A stretch of DNA of 64,000 nt from an uncultured Bacteroidota bacterium (GTDB taxonomy: Bacteria; Bacteroidota; Bacteroidia; Flavobacteriales; Flavobacteriaceae), in assembly GCA_902614065.1 (NCBI GenBank), contig CACMJT010000001.1, positions 156,501 through 220,500 of the forward strand, in the 5' to 3' direction. The notes below the pieces were generated by a model. The model was not told the DNA's origin. It ran no database searches and saw only the letters and a program-made list of their open reading frames with translations. Of this stretch, positions 64 to 58,505 are shown one piece after another. Position 1 is the stretch's first letter. Each line of letters opens with the position of its first letter. Position numbers and translations under genes: made by a program.

Positions 64-1455
64 ATGTCTAAAACATTATTTGATAAAGTTTGGGATGCTC
101 ACGTCGTTAAAAGGATAAAGAATGGACCTGATGTTCTATTCATCGACAGGCACCTAGTTCATGAAGTTACAAGCCCTGTTGCATTTTTGGGATTACAAAA
201 TCGTAAACTTGATGTTTTATTTCCTGATAAAACTTTTGCAACAGCAGATCATAACACTCCAACAAAAAATCAAAATTTACCGATAAAGGATCCCCTATCA
301 GCAAAGCAATTACAAACTTTAAAATTAAACTCTAAAAAACATAAAATTCCTTTCTGGGGACTAGGGCATAAAAAAAATGGTATTGTTCATGTCATAGGGC
401 CAGAAAATGGAATAACATTACCGGGCGCCACCATTGTTTGTGGTGACTCACATACATCAACTCATGGTGCATTTGGAGCAATTGCATTTGGGATTGGAAC
501 GTCTGAGGTCGAAATGGTTTTGACAACTCAGTGTGTTTTACAACCAAAGCCAAAGAAAATGAGAATAATAATAAATGGGAAACTAAACAATTATGTCACG
601 CCAAAAGATGTAGCACTTTATATCATATCTAAAATTTCAACATCGGGAGCAACAGGTCATTTTGTTGAATATTCTGGTGATGTTTTCGAAGCAATGAGTA
701 TGGAAGGCAGAATGACAGTTTGTAACTTATCCATAGAAATGGGTGCTAGAGGTGGTATGATTGCTCCTGATAAAAAAACAATAAATTACATTAGAGACAG
801 AGAATTTACACCCAAGGGTGATGTGTTCTTAAAACTATTAAAATACTGGAATAGTCTCAAAACAGAAAAAGATGCCACTTTTGATAGGGAATATGTATTT
901 GAAGGGGATAAAATTGAACCAATGATAACTTATGGAACTAATCCAGGAATGGGTACTTCAATTAGCGATGGAATTCCACATTACAAAGACCTGAACGTAA
1001 ACAAAGAAACATTTTTAAAATCTTTAAATTACATGAACTATTCAGAGGGAGATGATTTAATTGGAAAGAAAATTGATTATGTTTTTTTGGGCAGTTGTAC
1101 AAACGGAAGAATTGAGGACTTTAGACAATTTGCCAACTTTGTAAAGGGGAAGAAAAAATGCCCAAGTGTGACTGCATGGCTAGTTCCTGGCTCTCACAAT
1201 GTACATAATGAAATTGTTAATGAAGGTATTTTTGACATACTAACCAATTCTGGTTTTGAAATTAGAGAACCTGGATGTTCAGCATGCCTTGCAATGAACG
1301 AAGATAAAATTCCAAGTGGAAAATATGTAGTTAGCACATCAAACAGGAATTTTGAGGGAAGACAAGGTCCAGGCGCAAGGACACTCCTAGCCAGCCCTAT
1401 TGTTGCAGCAGCTGCAGCAATCACTGGAAAAATTACTGACCCAAGAATATTTTAA
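64..1455 (+). CDS. leuC: 3-isopropylmalate dehydratase large subunit
   Basis: LeuC is the iron-sulfur subunit of isopropylmalate isomerase, which converts 2- to 3-isopropylmalate in leucine synthesis in the cytoplasm. At 463 residues it has the normal family length. The three [4Fe-4S] ligands are visible: Cys345 in FLGSCTNG, and Cys405 and Cys408 in [11 protein letters not shown]. The active-site stretch [20 protein letters not shown] is also present. The ATG at 64 lies three bases after the preceding stop. The gene ends directly against the leuD ATG with no spacer, so the two subunits are probably translated together. The call is secure by family motifs. Confidence 0.97.
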
Positions 1456-4630: not shown

Positions 4631-6624
4631 ATTTCGTCATCCATTTTCTTTTTCAAGTCTACCAAAACATCTAAATCACCTAACGTTGATTTATCTACCT
4701 TTTCCTTTTTGACCTTAATTATTTCTTTCCTCTTGCTATAGGTTGCTAGATGCGATACAACAATTCTCTTGTATTCACTGTTACATTCGATAACATTAAA
4801 GTTTACAACATCACCCTTTTTTAACATTGAACCGTCTTCCTTTACCATGTGTTTTTTTGGAACAAATGCTGAAAGATCTTTGGTCAAAATTATAGTTGCT
4901 CCTCGATCCGTTAAGGAATCAATTTTTAATTCATGATTAGTTTCAACAGCATATGTTTTTTCATATTCATCCCAAGGGTTTTTAGTTGTTTGCTTATGAC
5001 CTAAACTTAGCTTTCGTTCATCAACATCAAGCTCAAGCACAACAACCTCAATCTCATCTCCAATTTGGAAAAGTTCAGAGGGGTGTTTTACTTTTTTTGT
5101 CCAAGATAAATCAGAAATGTAAACTAAACCATCAATCCCCTCTTCAAGTTCTACAAAAACTCCAAAATTTGTGAAGTTTCTTATCTTACCTTTGTGTTTT
5201 GACTTGGTTGGGTATTTTTTAGTAATATCTGTCCAAGGATCTGATGTCAACTGTTTAATTCCTAATGACATTTTTCTCTCATCTCTATCGATTGATAGAA
5301 TTACAGCTTCTACCTCATCCCCAACATTAACAAAGTCTTGGGCTGATCTTAAATGTGTAGACCAAGACATTTCCGAAACATGAACTAAGCCCTCAACACC
5401 TTCAGCAATTTCTATGAATGCACCATAATCTGCTAAAACTGATACTTTACCTTTTACTTTATCTCCCTCGTTGAGCTTCGCATCAAGATTTTCCCATGGA
5501 TGATCAGTTAACTGTTTTACACCAAGTTGTATTCTAGATTTATCGTCATCAAAATCTAAGATCACAACATTTAACTTTTGATCTAACTCCAATATTTCTG
5601 TTGGATGATTAATTCTATTCCATGATAAGTCTGTAATATGAATTAACCCATCAACTCCACCAAGGTCAACAAAAACACCGTATGTTGTAATATTTTTTAC
5701 AACACCTTCAAGAACTTGACCCTTTTCGAGTTGAGAAATAATTTCTTTTTTCTGCTCTTCAATATCAGCTTCAATAAGTGCTTTGTGAGATACTACAACA
5801 TTCTTGAACTCGTGATTAATTTTAACAATTCTGAATTCCATGTTTTTGTTTAGATATTGATCATAATCACGAATTGGCTTAACATCAATTTGAGATCCAG
5901 GTAAAAACGCCTCCAATCCAAAAACATCAACAATCATCCCTCCTTTGGTTCTACATTTTACAAATCCAGTGACAACAGTTTCTTTGTCGTGAGCATCAAT
6001 TACTCTTTCCCAAGCCTTTATTGTTCTCGCCTTTCTGTGTGATAAAACAAGTTGACCAGTCTTGTCCTCTTGAATATCAACAATAACCTCCACTTTATCA
6101 CCTACTTTAAGACCGGGGTTATACCTGAATTCATTTAAAGAAATTACACCCTCCGATTTAGCATTAATATCAATTATTGCCTCACGTTCTGTAATGTTTA
6201 TGACAACACCTTGAATTACATTCTCATTATATGTGTCAACAAAATTCTCATCAATCAACTTCTCAAACTCTTTAATTTTGGTATCTTCAATTATCTCAGT
6301 ACCTTCTTCAAACTTTGACCAATCAAAGTCATCAGGCCCTTCGACTATTATTTTTTTTGATTTCTTTTCTGTAGACTTTCTCTTAGATTCTAATTTTTTT
6401 GGAGCTACAACTTTTTCAACAGCTGTGGTTTTCTTAGCAGCTGTCGTTTTCTTAGCAGCTGTCGTTTTCTTAGCAGCTGTCGTTTTCTTAGCAGCTGTCG
6501 TTTTCTTAGCAGCTGTCGTTTTCTTAGCAGCTGTGGTTTTCTTAGCAGCTGTCGTTTTCTTAGATGTTAATTTTTTTTTGGTTTCTGATGATTTAGAAGC
6601 ATCATCTTTTTTTGATGGACTCAT
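4627..6624 (-). CDS. rpsA: 30S ribosomal protein S1 with lysine-rich N-terminal repeat
   Basis: Ribosomal protein S1 binds mRNA on the 30S subunit. The 665-residue protein shows six S1 (OB-fold) domains at about residues 134-199, 215-285, 302-373, 388-458, 473-545 and 560-630. The third to fifth have the classic GVFVDLGGVDGLIH-type core. Ahead of them is an extension of about 130 residues, absent from E. coli S1. Its first 69 residues are basic and contain eight tandem hexapeptides (KKTTAA, the last KKTTAV). Such Lys/Ala repeats resemble histone H1-like tails and could bind nucleic acid; that role is inference. The start ATG at 6622-6624 is followed at once by this tail. The gene follows cmk on the same strand. 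Confidence 0.96.
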   Translation of the reverse strand: MSPSKKDDASKSSETKKKLTSKKTTAAKKTTAAKKTTAAKKTTAAKKTTAAKKTTAAKKTTAAKKTTAVEKVVAPKKLESKRKSTEKKSKKIIVEGPDDFDWSKFEEGTEIIEDTKIKEFEKLIDENFVDTYNENVIQGVVINITEREAIIDINAKSEGVISLNEFRYNPGLKVGDKVEVIVDIQEDKTGQLVLSHRKARTIKAWERVIDAHDKETVVTGFVKCRTKGGMIVDVFGLEAFLPGSQIDVKPIRDYDQYLNKNMEFRIVKINHEFKNVVVSHKALIEADIEEQKKEIISQLEKGQVLEGVVKNITTYGVFVDLGGVDGLIHITDLSWNRINHPTEILELDQKLNVVILDFDDDKSRIQLGVKQLTDHPWENLDAKLNEGDKVKGKVSVLADYGAFIEIAEGVEGLVHVSEMSWSTHLRSAQDFVNVGDEVEAVILSIDRDERKMSLGIKQLTSDPWTDITKKYPTKSKHKGKIRNFTNFGVFVELEEGIDGLVYISDLSWTKKVKHPSELFQIGDEIEVVVLELDVDERKLSLGHKQTTKNPWDEYEKTYAVETNHELKIDSLTDRGATIILTKDLSAFVPKKHMVKEDGSMLKKGDVVNFNVIECNSEYKRIVVSHLATYSKRKEIIKVKKEKVDKSTLGDLDVLVDLKKKMDDEI
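6418..6561 (-). repeat. Eight tandem 18-bp units inside rpsA
   Basis: Eight head-to-tail 18-base units encode KKTTAA (residues 22-69 of S1). On the coding strand most read AAGAAAACGACAGCTGCT. The second and eighth units have a synonymous ACG to ACC change, and the eighth ends in GTT, giving Val. The near identity at DNA level points to recent copy-number change by slippage or recombination, in multiples that keep the reading frame. Confidence 0.95.
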
Positions 6625-14015: not shown

Positions 14016-14906
14016 TTGGATCTAACTACTTATTTTAAAGATTTTGAAAATTTTTTAAAATTGGAGAGAAATCTTTCTTTCAACACTATCAAAAGTTATA
14101 GGTCAGATTTAAAAAAGTTTGAATTTTATTTATCAAAAACAAGTGTCAAAAAATTAAGTTTTATAGGGCCTGAGATAGTCCGTGAATTTTTGTATGAGCA
14201 ATCGAAAAGAGTAAGTGTAAAAACTCAGGGAAGAATTATATCTACATTAAAAACTTTTTTCAATTTTTTAGTATTAGAAAAACTAATTAATGATAGTCCA
14301 ATTGAAAACATAGATTACCCAAAAGTTGATTCAAAAATTCCTTTAGTTCTTTCAACTGATGAAATAGATAAAATCATAAGTTGTGCTTTTTCAAAAAAAT
14401 TTGGATTAAGAAATCAGACAATAATTGAAATAATGTATAGTTGTGGTCTAAGAGTAAGTGAAGTAACTGAAATGAAAATATCGAACATATTTTTTGATGA
14501 ATCTTTAATTAAGATTTTGGGGAAAGGTAATAAGGAGAGATTTATTCCTCTAAGTAGGACTGCAAAAAAATTATTATATAATTATATCACATATAATAGA
14601 AAAAACTTTAGTCAAGATAAACAATCTATTGACATTGTTTTTTTGAACAACAGAGGAAAAAAATTAACCAGGGTAATGGTTTATAATATTATAAACGATG
14701 CTGCCTTGGAGGCGAAAATTAACAAAAAGATTAGTCCTCATACATTAAGGCACTCTTTCGCTACGCATCTAATCGAAAATGGTGCTTCTATTATAAGTAT
14801 TCAAAAAATGATGGGGCATGAAAATGTCGTTACAACCGAAAAATATTTACATGTGAATAAAAAACACCTTATTGAAACTATGATTAAGTTCCATCCAAGA
14901 AAATAA
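14016..14906 (+). CDS. xerD: Tyrosine recombinase XerD-like
   Basis: A 296-residue tyrosine recombinase of the XerC/XerD type, which resolves chromosome dimers at dif. The N-terminal SAM-like core-binding domain (about 1-90) is followed by the catalytic domain, with Arg in CGLRVSE, Lys in GKGNKERF, His and Arg in HTLRHSFATH, His in MGHEN and the nucleophile Tyr in TTEKYLHV. No upstream ATG fits, so the start is TTG at 14016. The normal length and housekeeping setting argue for the cellular Xer protein rather than an integrase. It ends one base before the converging response regulator. Confidence 0.9.
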   Translation: MDLTTYFKDFENFLKLERNLSFNTIKSYRSDLKKFEFYLSKTSVKKLSFIGPEIVREFLYEQSKRVSVKTQGRIISTLKTFFNFLVLEKLINDSPIENIDYPKVDSKIPLVLSTDEIDKIISCAFSKKFGLRNQTIIEIMYSCGLRVSEVTEMKISNIFFDESLIKILGKGNKERFIPLSRTAKKLLYNYITYNRKNFSQDKQSIDIVFLNNRGKKLTRVMVYNIINDAALEAKINKKISPHTLRHSFATHLIENGASIISIQKMMGHENVVTTEKYLHVNKKHLIETMIKFHPRK

Positions 14907-50908: not shown

Positions 50909-51303
50909 GGGGCCGACTGGATTTGACAGCGATCTAGTAGTGTTAGTAAGCAAACCGAGCGATTAGTTATAGCTCGTTAATATCAACTAAAAACTTTAAA
51001 TGGCGAAAATAAATACGCTCTTGCTGCTTAATGACTGAATCATAGTAAGTCTAAGCCTAGTCCTGCAAGGCAGGAAAGCGAGATGTCTCTAAGTTGTTTT
51101 TGTTAGCAACAACTTTTAATGAGACACCATATTGTTAACATAGAATAATTATTGCTTCAATAATTATTTGAAACTTTAGAAGCTAAGTGGTGATTGTGTA
51201 GTTTTCAGCAAGATCATCATCGAAAATTAAATGGAAACTAAGTTTGTAGAAAGCTAATGTTTCAGTCGTTTGGACGAGGGTTCGAATCCCTCCGGCTCCA
51301 CCA
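50909..51303 (+). ncRNA. ssrA: Transfer-messenger RNA (tmRNA)
   Basis: tmRNA rescues stalled ribosomes and tags the broken protein for proteolysis. The 5' end GGGGCCGACTGGATTTGACA and the 3' end with GGTTCGAATCCCTCCGGC plus CCA form the tRNA-like acceptor: G50909-G50915 pair with C51293-C51299, with A51300 as discriminator. The T-arm lies just before it. The tag frame starts at GGC 51002-51004 and encodes GENKYALAA, followed by TAA TGA. The length of 395 bases is normal. CCA is encoded. The gene ends three bases before the stop of a truncated lipoprotein gene on the other strand. Confidence 0.97.
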
Positions 51304-51305
51304 TT

Positions 51306-51551
51306 TTAAGAAATATAAATTACAATTGGGTAATCTATAGATGCATCAATATTGTTTGGCGCTTCAATTATAACCTCCCTCGAAACCAACGCCCCGTCGA
51401 TAACCTGTTCAATAAAAAAACTTGTGTCTGACAAATTGAGTAAAGGAACTAGTTCATCATCTTGTTGATTTTGAGTTTGATCATAGGAGCTGCTTGAACA
51501 TGATAAACACACCCATAATAGAATTGTTGTTATAATTTTATTCAGATTCAT
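51306..51551 (-). pseudogene. Truncated N-terminal remnant of an esterase-type lipoprotein
   Basis: The frame encodes about 81 residues: a lipoprotein signal peptide (IITTILLWVCLSC), a polar spacer, and FIEQVIDGALVSREVII ... YPIVIYIS, then stop. The last 40 residues align with the start of the hydrolase at 53586-54425 (FIEQ, VII, NI, YPVV). The alignment breaks exactly where that protein's catalytic domain begins (FGLHGNGG). The break lies at the tmRNA 3' end. I read it as a gene cut by recombination at ssrA. I chose the ATG at 51551; one at 51578 is possible. It might still be expressed as a small lipoprotein. Confidence 0.75.
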
Positions 51552-51612
51552 TAAAAACATCGGTTGGTTAAATGGCAAATATTCTTAAATTTAAAATCTT
51601 AATTTTAAAAAT

Positions 51613-52299
51613 ATGAAAAAAATAATTTTACTTTTTACAATCTTTTTTTCGTCTTTTTCATTTTCACAATACTGTGCTTTTTTTGATTTTAAAACAGATG
51701 AGCCAGAAATGGTTGTTTCAGCGCTTAAAGGTATGATGGAAACTGAATGGGCAAAAAATATTAATGGAACAAAATCTTTGTTTGCTTATCAATTCAACGG
51801 AAATACAGAAGCAACGCACTCAGTCCAATTTTGCTTCCCTGACGAAGCTTCTTTTGCAAATTGGTCATTATCCTGGTTTGCATCACCGGTTGCTCAAGTT
51901 TTTGGCGAAAAACTTAATAAGTACATAACCCCCGTAAAGACCGCTTTGAATACGCCTGCTTGGTTTAAAAATGACTGGACACCTGACCAAGTATTCATGA
52001 TTTGGGAAATGGAAGTTTCAGACCCAGGAAAATATGTGAAAGAATTTGCTTCTTTTTCTCAAGAAATGGCTGTAACTCAGGGATATGAGGAAAACTCATA
52101 TGGTCTAGGATATCCAATTAGTGGAAAAAATGATAGTTTTTCTCATTTTGTATGGGTTGGTGCACCTGATTTAGAATCAGCATTAAAGAGAACAAAAGAT
52201 ATGTATAATAGCCCTGAATTTGCAGAGTACTCAAAAAAAGTCAGTGGCGTTAGAAAAGTTGTAAACTCTTATATGATGGTAAGGTTGGCTGACTTCTAA
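51613..52299 (+). CDS. Secreted protein with two related domains, function unknown
   Basis: A 228-residue protein with a signal peptide (KKIILLFTIFFSSFSFS, cut before QYCAFF). The mature part looks like two copies of a domain of about 100 residues. In the first, THSVQFCFPDEASFANW...SPVAQVFGEKLNKYI corresponds to FSHFVWVGAPDLESALK...SPEFAEYSKKVSGVR in the second. Alternating strands and helices suggest ferredoxin-like alpha/beta-barrel (ABM-like) domains; this is inference. It is the first full gene after ssrA and ends at a strong terminator. No function can be assigned. Confidence 0.78.
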   Translation: MKKIILLFTIFFSSFSFSQYCAFFDFKTDEPEMVVSALKGMMETEWAKNINGTKSLFAYQFNGNTEATHSVQFCFPDEASFANWSLSWFASPVAQVFGEKLNKYITPVKTALNTPAWFKNDWTPDQVFMIWEMEVSDPGKYVKEFASFSQEMAVTQGYEENSYGLGYPISGKNDSFSHFVWVGAPDLESALKRTKDMYNSPEFAEYSKKVSGVRKVVNSYMMVRLADF

Positions 52300-53585: not shown

Positions 53586-54425
53586 ATGTTAGTTATTTCA
53601 AAAATTATACTGTTATCATTACTTGTATCATGTGAAGATAACGATAATCGTAATGATTTTGACACCTCCACAGAGCTAAAAACAGAAACTATATTTATTG
53701 AACAAAACGTAAGTGGTGTTATAGAGCGAAGACCCGTCATTATTCAAACAGAGTCAAATATTAATTCAAGCAAATTGTACCCTGTCGTTTTTGGATTACA
53801 TGGTAATGGTGGAACAAATACAGGTTTTTTAAATAGACTGAAAAGGTTTACTGACGATGGAGAATTTGTTGGTATATATCCTCAAGGAATTCAAAAATCT
53901 TGGAATTTAGGGTCGGAAGCTTCGAGAGCTGATGATATCCAATTTATTAATTTAATCATTGAGGAATTAAAAAAATATCAAAATCTTAATATGAACAAGG
54001 TATATGTCATTGGAAATTCAAATGGCTCTGGAATGGCCAACAAGTTGGGTGTAGAAACAAATCATTTTAAAGCGATTGCACCCATTGTAAGTCAATTAAT
54101 GGAAAGTATGCCGTTAAAGTCAACAACTCAACCCCTATCAGTTTTCCAAGTCAATGGAGCTTTGGATCCAATAATCCCAATCAACGGAGGACCTGGACCA
54201 GGAACACATATTTTTTTAGATGCTCTGCAAAGTGCAAAATTGTGGGCAAATAAATTTAATTGTTTTGAACCTCAAATTAGAATGATTGGAGAAGACACTC
54301 TCTATGAATTTAAAAACTGTGATGATGGAAAAGAGATTAGGTATTTAAGGATTGAAAATGGGGAACACAATGTTTTAAATCCTTTTTTAATCAATGAGAT
54401 TTGGAACTTCTTTCAAAGATTTTAG
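53586..54425 (+). CDS. Alpha/beta-hydrolase esterase lipoprotein (PHB depolymerase/feruloyl esterase-like)
   Basis: A lipoprotein of about 279 residues with signal peptide VISKIILLSLLVSC followed by EDNDN. The hydrolase domain has the oxyanion HGNGG, the nucleophile Ser in GNSNGSG, the acid in NGALDPIIPINGG and His in NGEHNVL. This pattern fits the LpqC/PHB depolymerase group, which includes carbohydrate (CE1-like) feruloyl and acetyl esterases. With GH10 nearby, action on decorated xylan is plausible but inferred. I start at ATG 53586, which opens the signal peptide. A truncated relative lies against ssrA. The next gene begins two bases after the stop. Confidence 0.82.
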   Translation: MLVISKIILLSLLVSCEDNDNRNDFDTSTELKTETIFIEQNVSGVIERRPVIIQTESNINSSKLYPVVFGLHGNGGTNTGFLNRLKRFTDDGEFVGIYPQGIQKSWNLGSEASRADDIQFINLIIEELKKYQNLNMNKVYVIGNSNGSGMANKLGVETNHFKAIAPIVSQLMESMPLKSTTQPLSVFQVNGALDPIIPINGGPGPGTHIFLDALQSAKLWANKFNCFEPQIRMIGEDTLYEFKNCDDGKEIRYLRIENGEHNVLNPFLINEIWNFFQRF

Positions 54426-54427
54426 CT

Positions 54428-55267
54428 ATGAAACATCACATCAAGAATTTATCAAATATTGTAATTGTTTTTTTATTATGCATGGGTTTAGGATTTGCTA
54501 CTCAAAATAAAATTGTAATTAACGGTATCATTTTGGTTTTTATTATCCACTGGGCATTGTACATTCCTGCAAATATTTTTAAAACCGAAAAATTTTATGA
54601 TCTAACAGGTAGTCTAGCTTACATTTCTGTGATTTCTTACATACTTTACTCAAAAACACAAAGCTTTGGGTCAGGAATAGGAGAAATTGTTATTTCCTTA
54701 GCAATAATAATATGGTCTGGTAGATTAGGTACATTTTTATTTTTAAGAATAAAAAAAGACGGTGAGGACAAAAGATTTAGAGAGTATAAAAAGTCATGGT
54801 CAAAATTTTTGGTTGCATGGACAACATCAGGAATGTGGGTAACAATATGCTCAGCATGTGCAATGACAGCTGTCGCATCGGAAAATATTATTGAGCTAAA
54901 TACCGCTTTTTTTACGGGTCTTGTTCTATTTATAATTGGATTTTCCATAGAGATTATAGCAGATTATCAAAAAACGAAATTTAGATCAATCAGTGAAAAT
55001 AAGAATAAATTCATAACGTCAGGCTTGTGGTCAAAATCAAGGCATCCAAACTATTTAGGTGAAATTATTCTTTGGTTAGGTATTTCTGTAATGTCATTTT
55101 CAAATCTAGAGGGATTACAATACATGACTCTGATATCACCAATTTTTACCTATTGGTTAATTGTTTATATAAGTGGGGTGAGTATGTTGGAGAAAAGTGG
55201 TCAAGAAAAATGGGGGCATTTAAAAGAATATCAGGATTACATTAAAAAAACTCCAAAATTATTTTAA
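54428..55267 (+). CDS. DUF1295 membrane protein (steroid 5-alpha-reductase-like)
   Basis: A 279-residue membrane protein with about seven hydrophobic helices. RLGTFLFLRIKKDGEDKRFREYKK in the middle and WSKSRHPNYLGEIILWLGI near the C-terminus are the DUF1295 signatures. These mark the isoprenylcysteine-methyltransferase/steroid reductase superfamily and the NADPH-binding end of the fold. The substrate is unknown. The ATG at 54428 is preferred because the upstream in-frame ATG at 54401 lies inside the esterase gene. The 3' end overlaps the converging GH10 gene by nine bases. Confidence 0.87.
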   Translation: MKHHIKNLSNIVIVFLLCMGLGFATQNKIVINGIILVFIIHWALYIPANIFKTEKFYDLTGSLAYISVISYILYSKTQSFGSGIGEIVISLAIIIWSGRLGTFLFLRIKKDGEDKRFREYKKSWSKFLVAWTTSGMWVTICSACAMTAVASENIIELNTAFFTGLVLFIIGFSIEIIADYQKTKFRSISENKNKFITSGLWSKSRHPNYLGEIILWLGISVMSFSNLEGLQYMTLISPIFTYWLIVYISGVSMLEKSGQEKWGHLKEYQDYIKKTPKLF

Positions 55268-56611
55268 AACCAAATCAATTGGCCCATCTGTTTCTTTGTC
55301 AACAGAGAAACTGAATTTATAGATTTTTTTATCTACTAGCATTTCGCCCTCATAATCTCCATAGAATCCCCTAAATTCAAAAGAATCGCTAATGTTTATT
55401 TTTTCACTTATTTCAGTTGTCCAAGTTTCTTTTATTAACTTTTTCAAAGTCAAAAATGATTTTTTTGGAGATAAGTCTTTGTAAAGCAATCCCCCGGCAT
55501 GTCCTCTCCATGCATTTTTATCAGTTAGGTTCCAAAAAGTAATAGAACTAACACTCGGATGACTGAAAACAAGTGTGTAAAAGTCTTTTAAATAAGATGC
55601 TTGAAAATCTTCATATTCAGGAAGGCTTGGTAAGTCCATTTCTTTCCCATTTCGTAGTGATTCATCTCTCTTAGCTAAAAACTCTTGGTGATCTTTCCAA
55701 TTATTAAATCTTTTCGAACTTGTCACAGTGATTTCTGTAAACTGAATGTTTTTTCCCAAAACTGCATAATCCTCAATCTGATCCCAAACTTGACTTTCAG
55801 TCATGACATTATCATTCGACTGCATATGAGCTTGCATGCCAATTGAACTGAAATTTAAATTTTTCTGTACGTAATATTCATTTATTTTAAAATATTCGGG
55901 GTCCTTTGCGTGGTAGTGATTATTTGAATAATTCTTATCTGGATTAACGCTGTTAACAAACTGATAGATTTCTACCATTGCTGGATATATTCCACCTTTG
56001 TAATTGATCCAATCTTGAATAGCACTGTATGGAATGTGAGGTTTAAATGGTCCAACTGGTTCATTGTATACGTCCCAGTCATTAATTTCCGGATAAGTTT
56101 CAATTAATCTCCTCATGTGTGTTTTCATAGCGACCTCAAGCTCATCCAAATCTTTAGAATATCTTACCCAATCAGGCATACCCTCATGCCACATCAATGG
56201 ATGACCTTTTAGTCGAACATTATTTTTTATTGACCATTTAATAATATCATCATAATATTTATCAATCTGTTTTCTACTACTTCTTTCGTCTGTAAGTCCC
56301 CAATACATGCCGACAGTTGCATAATTAAAAGCCTCTTTAAATCTTTCAAGATATAAATCAAACATATTTCCTCTCATCTTCCTCAACTGAGTAAAGCCAA
56401 CTCCAAATTTAAAGTCATGATTAATTAATTTAATTTTTAATTTTCCGTTCTTTTTTTTGATGTCAGTTGGGAAATTAAAGTTTAAAATCGTGTTGGTTTT
56501 TCTGTATTTTTCAATTCTCTCATCAGCCCCTTCTAATTTCCATGGCTCATGAAAACTTGGATCTTGAGCAAAAATTAATAGAGGGAATATTATATAGAAT
56601 AAATATTTCAT
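55259..56611 (-). CDS. Glycoside hydrolase family 10 enzyme (xylanase-like)
   Basis: A secreted enzyme of 450 residues (signal FYIIFPLLIFA, cut before QDPSF). The GH10 barrel features are visible: KGHPLMWHEGMPDW (137-148), acid/base Glu184 in WDVYNEPVGPF, GMQAHM (258-263), nucleophile Glu293 in FTEITVT, and FWNLTDKNAWRGHAGGLL. The usual Asp/Asn two residues after the nucleophile is Thr, and WHSQ reads WHEG, so this is a divergent member. A small beta-rich C-terminal piece follows (about 400-450). It starts one base after the sulfatase stop, indicating cotranscription. Endo-beta-1,4-xylanase is the likeliest activity. Confidence 0.88.
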   Translation of the reverse strand: MKYLFYIIFPLLIFAQDPSFHEPWKLEGADERIEKYRKTNTILNFNFPTDIKKKNGKLKIKLINHDFKFGVGFTQLRKMRGNMFDLYLERFKEAFNYATVGMYWGLTDERSSRKQIDKYYDDIIKWSIKNNVRLKGHPLMWHEGMPDWVRYSKDLDELEVAMKTHMRRLIETYPEINDWDVYNEPVGPFKPHIPYSAIQDWINYKGGIYPAMVEIYQFVNSVNPDKNYSNNHYHAKDPEYFKINEYYVQKNLNFSSIGMQAHMQSNDNVMTESQVWDQIEDYAVLGKNIQFTEITVTSSKRFNNWKDHQEFLAKRDESLRNGKEMDLPSLPEYEDFQASYLKDFYTLVFSHPSVSSITFWNLTDKNAWRGHAGGLLYKDLSPKKSFLTLKKLIKETWTTEISEKINISDSFEFRGFYGDYEGEMLVDKKIYKFSFSVDKETDGPIDLVLK

Positions 56612-56612
56612 T

Positions 56613-58010
56613 TTAATAATGGGTTTTTATGTAATCGGAGTCTTTTATTTTACCAATTAAATTTTTTTGAACATTCATCCACTTCGAAGGTTCATCAAGT
56701 GGATGTTGAGTAGGCTTTATGAGAGGAATATTTCCTAATGATACAATATCATTTTGAGAGACCATCCACTCATCGAGACTTTTACTCAATTCACTAATAA
56801 TATGTTTTGAGCCAGGTTTTTTTGAAATATTATTTTTCTCAAAAGGATCTAATTCTAAATCATACAACTCCACGTAAGGAACATTTGGCATTTTTTGGGC
56901 TCCAATTTCAATGAATTTGTTTAATACTCTTCCTTTGTTTAAGTTTTCTTTATAAACTTCGATAGAATTGAAATTTTTAATCATTTTGTGCTTTCCATTA
57001 CTAATCATCCTAGAGGGAAAAATAAATCCATTTCTAACGTTTTGTCTTGTAGAAACACCATAAACAAAATCATTCACTTTTTTGTCATTTCCAATTAATA
57101 GATCACTAAAACTTTTTCCGTCAAACTCATTCAGATCACCTCCAGCAATATCTACAATTGTTGGTAATATATCAACCATGGCTAGTAGTCTATTTGACTC
57201 AATATTTTTTTTAATTTTTCCTGGCCATCTAACTATAACAGGAATTTTAAGTCCTTTTTGATAAAGTGTAAACTTTCCTGAAATTCCATGATCTGAAGCA
57301 TAAATAAACATGGTATTGTTTTTTAAATCATTACGATCAATCATACTTAGGATTTCCCCTAGCTGAATATCATCATATTTTATGTTTTGATAGTACCCAG
57401 GTTTTTCTGGTGTTGCTCTATTGTTATAGGGATGGATTTTAATATCATCTAATGTATAATCAGTTTCATTAGGATATGGTCCGTGAGGAAAATCACTTGC
57501 TAGAACAAGACAAAATGGTTTTTCCGCATTTTTTAAATAGCTATCGATTGATTCAAGATCTAACTGCTTATTTTGCTTGTTTTGAATGTAATAGTCCCAG
57601 GCAAATGTGTTGTAGGGCCCAACGTGACTTTTTCCAGCTAAAACAACTTCATAACCTATCGCAGATAAATGTTGAACAATTGTTTTTGTATCTTTTTTTA
57701 CATGGGTATGGTTTGTATAGCTACCATTTTTGAGGGGATACAAACCTGTATACAATTGCGATCTGCTTGGTGTGCAGATTGCAGAGGCAGTATGGAAATT
57801 TGTAAACCTTATTCCTTCAGATGCCAATTTATTGACGTTGGCTGATTGGACATTTTCATTACCAAAAATATTGTAATCTAAAAAATCTTGGTCATCTGAA
57901 AGGTAAATGATAAAATTTGGACGTTCTGAGGATGGTTCATTACCAGTTTTAGCGCTAAAAAAAGCTATGATATTTAGACAAATTAAATAAAGTAAAATTT
58001 TTATCGACAT
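56613..58010 (-). CDS. Sulfatase, S1 family
   Basis: A 465-residue secreted sulfatase (signal ILLYLICLNIIAFFSA). Metal-binding Asp39-Asp40 lie in YLSDDQDF. Cys79 in CTPSRSQLYTG is the residue converted to formylglycine, followed by GKSHVG and the second metal site ASDHG in YASDHGISGKF. The C-terminal region contains VELYDLELDPFEKNN. It removes sulfate esters, probably from a polysaccharide, outside the cytoplasm. The maturation enzyme is not in the window. The GH10 gene follows after one base, so the pair probably acts on the same sulfated glycan. Confidence 0.93.
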   Translation of the reverse strand: MSIKILLYLICLNIIAFFSAKTGNEPSSERPNFIIYLSDDQDFLDYNIFGNENVQSANVNKLASEGIRFTNFHTASAICTPSRSQLYTGLYPLKNGSYTNHTHVKKDTKTIVQHLSAIGYEVVLAGKSHVGPYNTFAWDYYIQNKQNKQLDLESIDSYLKNAEKPFCLVLASDFPHGPYPNETDYTLDDIKIHPYNNRATPEKPGYYQNIKYDDIQLGEILSMIDRNDLKNNTMFIYASDHGISGKFTLYQKGLKIPVIVRWPGKIKKNIESNRLLAMVDILPTIVDIAGGDLNEFDGKSFSDLLIGNDKKVNDFVYGVSTRQNVRNGFIFPSRMISNGKHKMIKNFNSIEVYKENLNKGRVLNKFIEIGAQKMPNVPYVELYDLELDPFEKNNISKKPGSKHIISELSKSLDEWMVSQNDIVSLGNIPLIKPTQHPLDEPSKWMNVQKNLIGKIKDSDYIKTHY

Positions 58011-58052
58011 TGAACTTAAAATTACATTGTTTTCTAAAGAACTTTCAAACTT

Positions 58053-58505
58053 TTATAAATTATTTAAAAACTTTTCTGTTAACAATTTTGAATCTAACTC
58101 ATAGTCCAAATTAAATTTGAATTTTTTATTAGGAAAATTAATCTTGACAAAACCATCGAAATTCAAATCAAATTGACTCATATATATCATTGATAAACTG
58201 AGTGCATCAGTGTTAATTTTAATCAAACAATTTATTTTTGTGAAATTGTTCTTCTTTAGACTAATTTTATCTAAATTTTCAAATTCACCAAAAAATTTTG
58301 CATTAAAATAAATTTTAGAATAAACCTGACTTGCCCTTAAATTTTTATTGTTGGGATTGTATAAATTTAGCTCTGATTTTAAAATTATTTGATTATCCTC
58401 AATTCCCATGAATTGTACATCAGATATTTCCTTAACCTCGATTTGTTTTATTGAGGTTCCACAACTCATTAAAAAAAGAAAAATTAAGAATAGTATATTT
58501 TTCAT
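58053..58505 (-). CDS. LEA type 2-like lipoprotein
   Basis: A 150-residue lipoprotein with signal LFLIFLFLMSC and Cys15 as anchor. The body has one beta-sandwich-like domain with the pattern SDVQFMGIEDNQIILKSELNLYNPNNKNLRA, which resembles LEA-2/WHy domains. These are often found in small bacterial lipoproteins of unknown role. It lies 42 bases ahead of the sulfatase on the same strand, so a link to that pair is possible but not shown. It is divergent from the M48 protease. Confidence 0.7.
   Translation of the reverse strand: MKNILFLIFLFLMSCGTSIKQIEVKEISDVQFMGIEDNQIILKSELNLYNPNNKNLRASQVYSKIYFNAKFFGEFENLDKISLKKNNFTKINCLIKINTDALSLSMIYMSQFDLNFDGFVKINFPNKKFKFNLDYELDSKLLTEKFLNNL

What the first reader, a model, noticed from the sequence alone, without database searches (positions are those of the whole stretch)
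50909..51551. Lipoprotein gene cut off exactly at the tmRNA 3' end
The frame on the minus strand ends three bases from the encoded CCA of ssrA. Its last 40 residues match the start of a full-length hydrolase 2 kb away, but the catalytic domain is gone. tmRNA 3' ends are classic attachment sites for integrases, so this looks like the scar of an integration or deletion event.
Basis: partly seen in the sequence, partly recalled or inferred. Interest (0 to 1): 0.7.

Follow-up and report, generated by a model that had tools for sequence, protein, structure and literature searches.

The report
Deletion-truncated esterase gene beside tmRNA
A marine flavobacterium has lost most of an esterase gene, and the genes on both sides of it, through what look like three small deletions next to its tmRNA gene; this is a well-documented but ordinary relic, in a spot where its relatives carry very different genes.

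Summary
The 81-codon minus-strand frame (51306-51551) is the first ~78 codons of a 292-aa esterase-like lipoprotein that is intact in the same interval in three close relatives (97% nucleotide identity to the nearest); the catalytic part is gone. The deletion reading is right; the attachment-site reading is not supported. Aligned with relatives, the 309 bases between ssrA and the next gene hold three deletion junctions, each with 5-7 shared bases: ssrA flank to the last 22 bases of a lost cargo gene (DUF1287); that remnant to codon ~78 of the esterase; and esterase start to the upstream tail of a lost sulfatase-like gene. No second copy of the ssrA 3' end was found, and the only tyrosine recombinase found on the ssrA contig is a Xer-like gene 36 kb away, at the same distance in relatives. 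The interval is 309, 1420, 2314, 6610 and 7932 bases long in five species, and is the only kilobase-scale difference in the 42-63 kb compared. So: a pseudogene relic in an apparently integrase-free variable spot beside ssrA, most likely shaped by exchange between flanks and short-homology deletions.

The parts
50909..51303 (+). ssrA (tmRNA), complete, CCA encoded
   Evidence: ARAGORN and Rfam RF00023, 156.7 bits
51304..51308 (.). junction 1: TTTTA, shared by the ssrA flank as in G009 and the end of the lost cargo gene
51304..51325 (+). remnant of 22 bases, identical to the last codons of the DUF1287 cargo gene of G013 (G013 oriented 4699-4720)
   Evidence: chance control
51319..51325 (.). junction 2: ATTACAA, shared by the cargo end and the inside of the esterase gene in G013 (about 653 bp lost relative to G013)
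51306..51551 (-). truncated esterase-like lipoprotein gene, 81 codons: start and first ~78 codons of a 292-aa gene; last codons and stop come from the cargo remnant
51550..51554 (.). junction 3: ATTAA, shared by the esterase start (G013) and the upstream tail of the sulfatase-like gene (G010); about 1345 bp lost relative to G013
51550..51612 (.). tail that lies between the sulfatase-like gene and the next gene in G009, G010 and G013; G008 has a different, shorter join here
51613..52299 (+). conserved right-hand flank gene (228 aa, no Pfam family)
   Evidence: 97-98% identical in G009, G010, G013
53586..54425 (+). full-length paralogue (279 aa hydrolase)
   Evidence: 48% identical to G013's full-length version of the truncated gene

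Best explanation
The frame is a decayed remnant of an esterase-like lipoprotein gene. In an ancestor the interval between ssrA and the conserved 228-aa gene held, in order, a cargo block ending in a DUF1287 gene, the full esterase gene on the minus strand and a sulfatase-like gene, as G013 still does. Three deletions between direct repeats of 5-7 bases removed the cargo except 22 bases, the last ~214 codons of the esterase, and the sulfatase-like gene (the junctions are shown by alignment; the ancestor and the number of events are inferred from relatives). The interval is a spot where species of this clade gain, swap and lose accessory genes without a recognisable integrase; exchange by homologous recombination in the flanking genes, with slippage-type deletion, is the likely mechanism (inferred). 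The stub is most likely not functional (inferred).
For: Full-length versions in the same interval in G013, G009 and G008. Right after ssrA, an exact 22-base match to the end of the cargo gene in G013 and of at least 18 bases in G008; of 127,920 start positions on both strands of the window only this one reaches 22 bases in the G013 cargo. Junctions share 5, 7 and 5 bases; random endpoint pairs in the same interval share 5 or more in 1.2% of cases. No other intact copy of this esterase found in the own genome. Interval lengths 309/1420/2314/6610/7932, while elsewhere in the 42-63 kb compared single gaps are at most 54 bases and clustered gaps add up to about 80. The stub is 97.0% identical to G013 at DNA level against 82.0% for the 51 kb upstream and 87.2% and 90.6% for adjoining stretches, which suggests recent exchange.
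Against: The direct ancestor is not seen; repeats are read from relatives that are 82-90% identical overall. With the ssrA flank of G013 or G008 in place of G009's, junction 1 has a shorter repeat; with G008's cargo end, junction 2 has about 5 rather than 7 shared bases. For the G008 cargo, one other window position also reaches the 17-base match tested there. High identity to G013 is not special to the stub: 17 of 3114 sliding windows reach it, and of the 12 listed 11 lie at 54-58 kb. The junction is known from one genome only, and its reads were not available.
Confidence: 0.87

Rival explanations
1. One event rather than three: a replication template switch with several jumps, or one incoming DNA fragment joined by homology at one end and illegitimately at the other, made the junctions together and left islets of 22 and about 236 bases in the original order.
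For: All three junctions lie within 251 bases and share 5-7 bases; no other kilobase-scale change in the compared stretch; the stub looks recently exchanged. Homology-assisted illegitimate recombination is described in PMC2884548 (section 14 read).
Against: Other species changed the same interval on their own: G010 lacks the esterase, G008 the sulfatase-like gene, so repeated separate deletions here are expected.
Confidence: 0.25
2. Scar of an integrative element that used the tmRNA 3' end as attachment site, now lost together with its integrase.
For: The variable part starts 0-30 bases after ssrA in relatives; ssrA is a known target (PMC3146451 and PMC11915505, passages). In one genome of the order, G040, a tyrosine recombinase lies about 4 kb from ssrA, though on its 5' side.
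Against: No convincing duplicate of the ssrA end, no tyrosine recombinase near ssrA in the genus, no recombinase family among the cargo proteins scanned, junctions explained by short repeats. Serine recombinases were not searched genome-wide.
Confidence: 0.04
3. Chimera of single-cell amplification or of assembly.
For: Short-homology joins are typical of amplification chimeras (recalled); the junction is in one genome only; whether this genome is a single-cell assembly is not known.
Against: Three joins in the right order and strand within 251 bases would all have to be artefacts; overlaps of 5-7 bases are too short for an assembler to join without reads across them (inference); the contig is 305 kb and the window is otherwise collinear with relatives.
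Confidence: 0.07
4. The 81-aa frame is a working short lipoprotein.
For: Start, signal-like N-terminus and frame are intact; 7 base changes against G013 leave 2 residue changes.
Against: Lacks the catalytic part; its last residues come from unrelated DNA; the short form is not in relatives. The truncation may be too recent to show decay.
Confidence: 0.04

Closest known systems
Short-homology (slippage-type) deletions and small variable segments, Touzain et al. 2010 (PMC2884548; outline and section 14 read)
   Same: Loss of segments between direct repeats of 5 bases or more, with no mobile element
   Different: Three such junctions within 251 bases, beside ssrA, in a small-genome marine flavobacterium
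Integrase-free horizontal-transfer hotspots, Oliveira et al. 2017 (PMC5635113; abstract and passages seen)
   Same: High gene turnover between conserved flanks; many hotspots lack mobile elements and show recombination in flanking core genes
   Different: Here the flank is ssrA, usually cited as an integrase target; the evidence is five species, not a population
ssrA genomic islands of Dehalococcoides (PMC3146451; passages seen)
   Same: Variable genes downstream of ssrA
   Different: Those have 20-bp repeats of the ssrA 3' end and many carry a recombinase module; neither was found here

Membership tests
Deletion-truncated pseudogene | intact version at the same place in relatives | tested here: met
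   G013, G009 and G008; absent from G010's interval
Deletion-truncated pseudogene | catalytic part missing | tested here: met
   match ends at codon 78-79 of 292; position of the catalytic motifs recalled for the family
Deletion-truncated pseudogene | no function left | not testable with these tools
   needs expression data
Short-homology deletion | short direct repeats at the breakpoints, no inserted DNA | tested here: met
   5, 7 and 5 bases, read from relatives
Site-specific integration at ssrA | second copy of the ssrA 3' end bounding the element | tested here: not met
   19 of 20 searches no better than shuffled queries, one better by one mismatch
Site-specific integration at ssrA | integrase or other recombinase gene in the element | tested here: not met
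   tyrosine type. Seven G008 cargo proteins and the 1032-aa protein of G013 have no recombinase family in Pfam; the other two G013 cargo proteins are relatives of two of the G008 ones. Serine type not searched genome-wide
Site-specific integration at ssrA | boundary in or at the tRNA-like 3' part of ssrA | tested here: inconclusive
   variable part starts 0-30 bases after ssrA
Integrase-free recombination hotspot | raised recombination in flanking genes | tested here: inconclusive
   identity to G013 or G010 rises in the stub and at 54-58 kb; no population data

The most novel reading that the evidence does not exclude
The tmRNA gene marks an integrase-free exchange spot for accessory, in one case defence-type, cargo in a small-genome marine flavobacterial genus, and the window shows its emptying by a single multi-jump template switch that left ordered islets of each lost gene.
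Probability: 0.2. Interest if true: 0.45.

Novelty: new member of a known kind. Interest (0 to 1): 0.27.

Why it matters
Truncated genes beside a tRNA or tmRNA gene are often read as attachment-site scars. Here base-level comparison shows variability at ssrA with no integrase footprint found, explained by exchange between flanks and short-repeat deletion, and shows how a 22-base remnant can reveal a lost cargo gene.

Tried and rejected
Attachment-site scar: tested by searching for a second ssrA end and for integrases; rejected. A C-terminal piece (residues 81-292) in G007 as the missing half: rejected, it is 51% identical and its contig ends there. Weak matches of the region elsewhere in the genome: not followed. 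Viral-contig relatives of the esterase and of the G008 reverse transcriptase: none confirmed. The 319-aa G008 cargo protein: no match in 395 genomes of the order (the answer itself warns that no positive control was in that set) and none in plasmids. G020's DUF1287 locus was only compared with the cargo proteins. Promoter and terminator scan: no terminator-like site right after ssrA in the window, and promoter-like sites no more than in shuffles. Of six paper searches, searches gave listings that I did not use.

Full report
What is there. The window is part of a draft genome of 1.36 Mb in 24 contigs, 87% complete. ssrA lies at 50909-51303. The frame 51306-51551 on the minus strand encodes 81 aa with a lipoprotein-type start (signal type judged by eye). 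It has no Pfam family of its own.

Its origin. Residues 1-78 match a 292-aa protein encoded between ssrA and the conserved 228-aa gene in G013 (97%), G009 (88%) and G008 (77%); that protein is missing from the interval of G010. In G009 it lies right next to ssrA; in G013 and G008 cargo genes lie between. The G008 version has similarity below the cut-off to short-chain PHA depolymerases and matches a solved feruloyl esterase by sequence (4e-14). The hydrolase 2 kb away in the window is a paralogue, 48% identical to G013's protein; the own genome gave three matches in all, this paralogue, the stub and one 26% relative.

The junctions. Counting from the ssrA start, window 396-417 is identical to G013 4699-4720, the last codons of a DUF1287 gene that ends against the esterase stop. 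Window 411-646 then matches G013 5367-5602, inside the esterase, and from 644 on the match resumes at G013 6945. The bases right of the esterase start are the tail that follows the sulfatase-like gene in G009, G010 and G013; G008 has a different, shorter join there. So the window's ancestor most likely had the cargo, the whole esterase and the sulfatase-like gene, and deletions removed them. Shared bases at the joins are TTTTA, ATTACAA and ATTAA. Random endpoint pairs in G013's interval share 5 or more bases in 1.2% of cases; the repeats are read from relatives and depend on which one is used, so the figure is a guide. 'Sulfatase-like' rests on 24-26% identity to the window's own sulfatase-like gene; that gene was itself named by eye.

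Control for chance. Of 127,920 start positions on both strands of the window, one has a match of 22 bases or more to the G013 cargo: this one. For the G008 cargo the match within the slice tested is 17 bases, and one other position reaches that. The window is collinear with four relatives over 42-63 kb, with breaks only between ssrA and the 228-aa gene in 4 of 4 comparisons. Other gaps of 15 bases or more number 9, each at most 54 bases; one (16 bases, G008) is in the same interval, and clusters at 6.4-6.6 kb (G013) and 62.8 kb (G009, G010) add up to 76-80 bases.

A variable spot. The interval from ssrA to the 228-aa gene is 309 bases in the window, 1420 in G010, 2314 in G009, 6610 in G013 and 7932 in G008. 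In the genus, 17 of 23 genomes gave a full ssrA; the first gene after it falls, by my reading of the frames, into about ten kinds among these 17. G008's cargo is a WYL-type regulator, a retron-type reverse transcriptase, a 319-aa protein, a RecD-like helicase, a 179-aa protein, a 177-aa protein and a DUF1287 protein; the last two have relatives in G013. DUF1287 relatives occur in 5 of 37 genomes searched.

Not an attachment site, as far as tested. The last 26 bases of ssrA occur once in the genome with up to 3 mismatches. Of 20 searches (five intervals, four lengths), 19 matched the ssrA end no better than the best of 20 shuffled queries; the exception, 30 bases in G010, has 13 mismatches against 14. 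The own genome has two tyrosine recombinases; the one in the window, 14016-14906, scores best to XerD, somewhat under that model's cut-off (302.8 against 329.6 bits), and passes a general Xer-type subfamily model. A recombinase lies 36-37 kb to the 5' side of ssrA in 11 of 17 genomes of the genus, own included; in the other 6 the ssrA contig is too short to tell. In the order, G040 has a tyrosine recombinase about 4 kb from ssrA on the 5' side, not followed up. Serine recombinases were not searched genome-wide.

Recent exchange. The stub differs from G013 at 7 of 236 bases, while adjoining stretches are 87.2% (3.3 kb upstream) and 90.6% (5.6 kb downstream) identical and the 51 kb upstream 82.0%. 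Seven or fewer differences have a binomial probability of 1e-4 at 9.4% divergence and less at higher values. But 17 of 3114 sliding windows reach the same identity; of the 12 listed, 11 lie at 54-58 kb and one overlaps the stub. So this is regional exchange and not special to the stub.

Prior work. Islands at ssrA with end repeats are known (PMC3146451, PMC11915505; passages). Integrase-free hotspots with recombination in flanking genes are known (PMC5635113; abstract and passages), and so are short-repeat deletions (PMC2884548; outline and section 14). The finding is a clean example of these and not a new kind.

Noticed in passing
L116:2427-7749 (genome G008): Cargo after ssrA: WYL-type regulator, retron-type reverse transcriptase of 481 aa (best models RT-Protease_XI and RT-TIR_XII, matched over the RT part), a 319-aa unknown and a RecD-like helicase. 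L170/L177 (another family) has a similar order: WYL, RT at 52% identity, a 263-aa protein, a helicase piece. Possibly an RT defence operon not yet described; one paper search listing only.
   Followed up: partly
L117, L126, L127, L128, L129, L130 (ssrA 3' ends): In 6 of 17 ssrA genes of this genus the CCA end is not encoded (CTA, CAA or CTT instead), while the window encodes CCA.
   Followed up: no
window 54000-58500: Identity to G013 is 90-97% in 500-base bins against 82% over the 51 kb upstream, with G009 at 77-91%: looks like a recombined tract.
   Followed up: partly
L037:7314-10412 (genome G013): A 1032-aa cargo protein after ssrA with no family beyond a weak beta-propeller match far below its cut-off.
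   Followed up: no
L118, right after ssrA (genome G010): About 28 bases between ssrA and the sulfatase-like gene are outside the alignable part of G009 and G013; possibly the end of another lost cargo.
   Followed up: no
G040:C3:182340-187381: In this genome of the same order a tyrosine recombinase (303 aa, 130 bits) lies about 4 kb from ssrA, on its 5' side.
   Followed up: no
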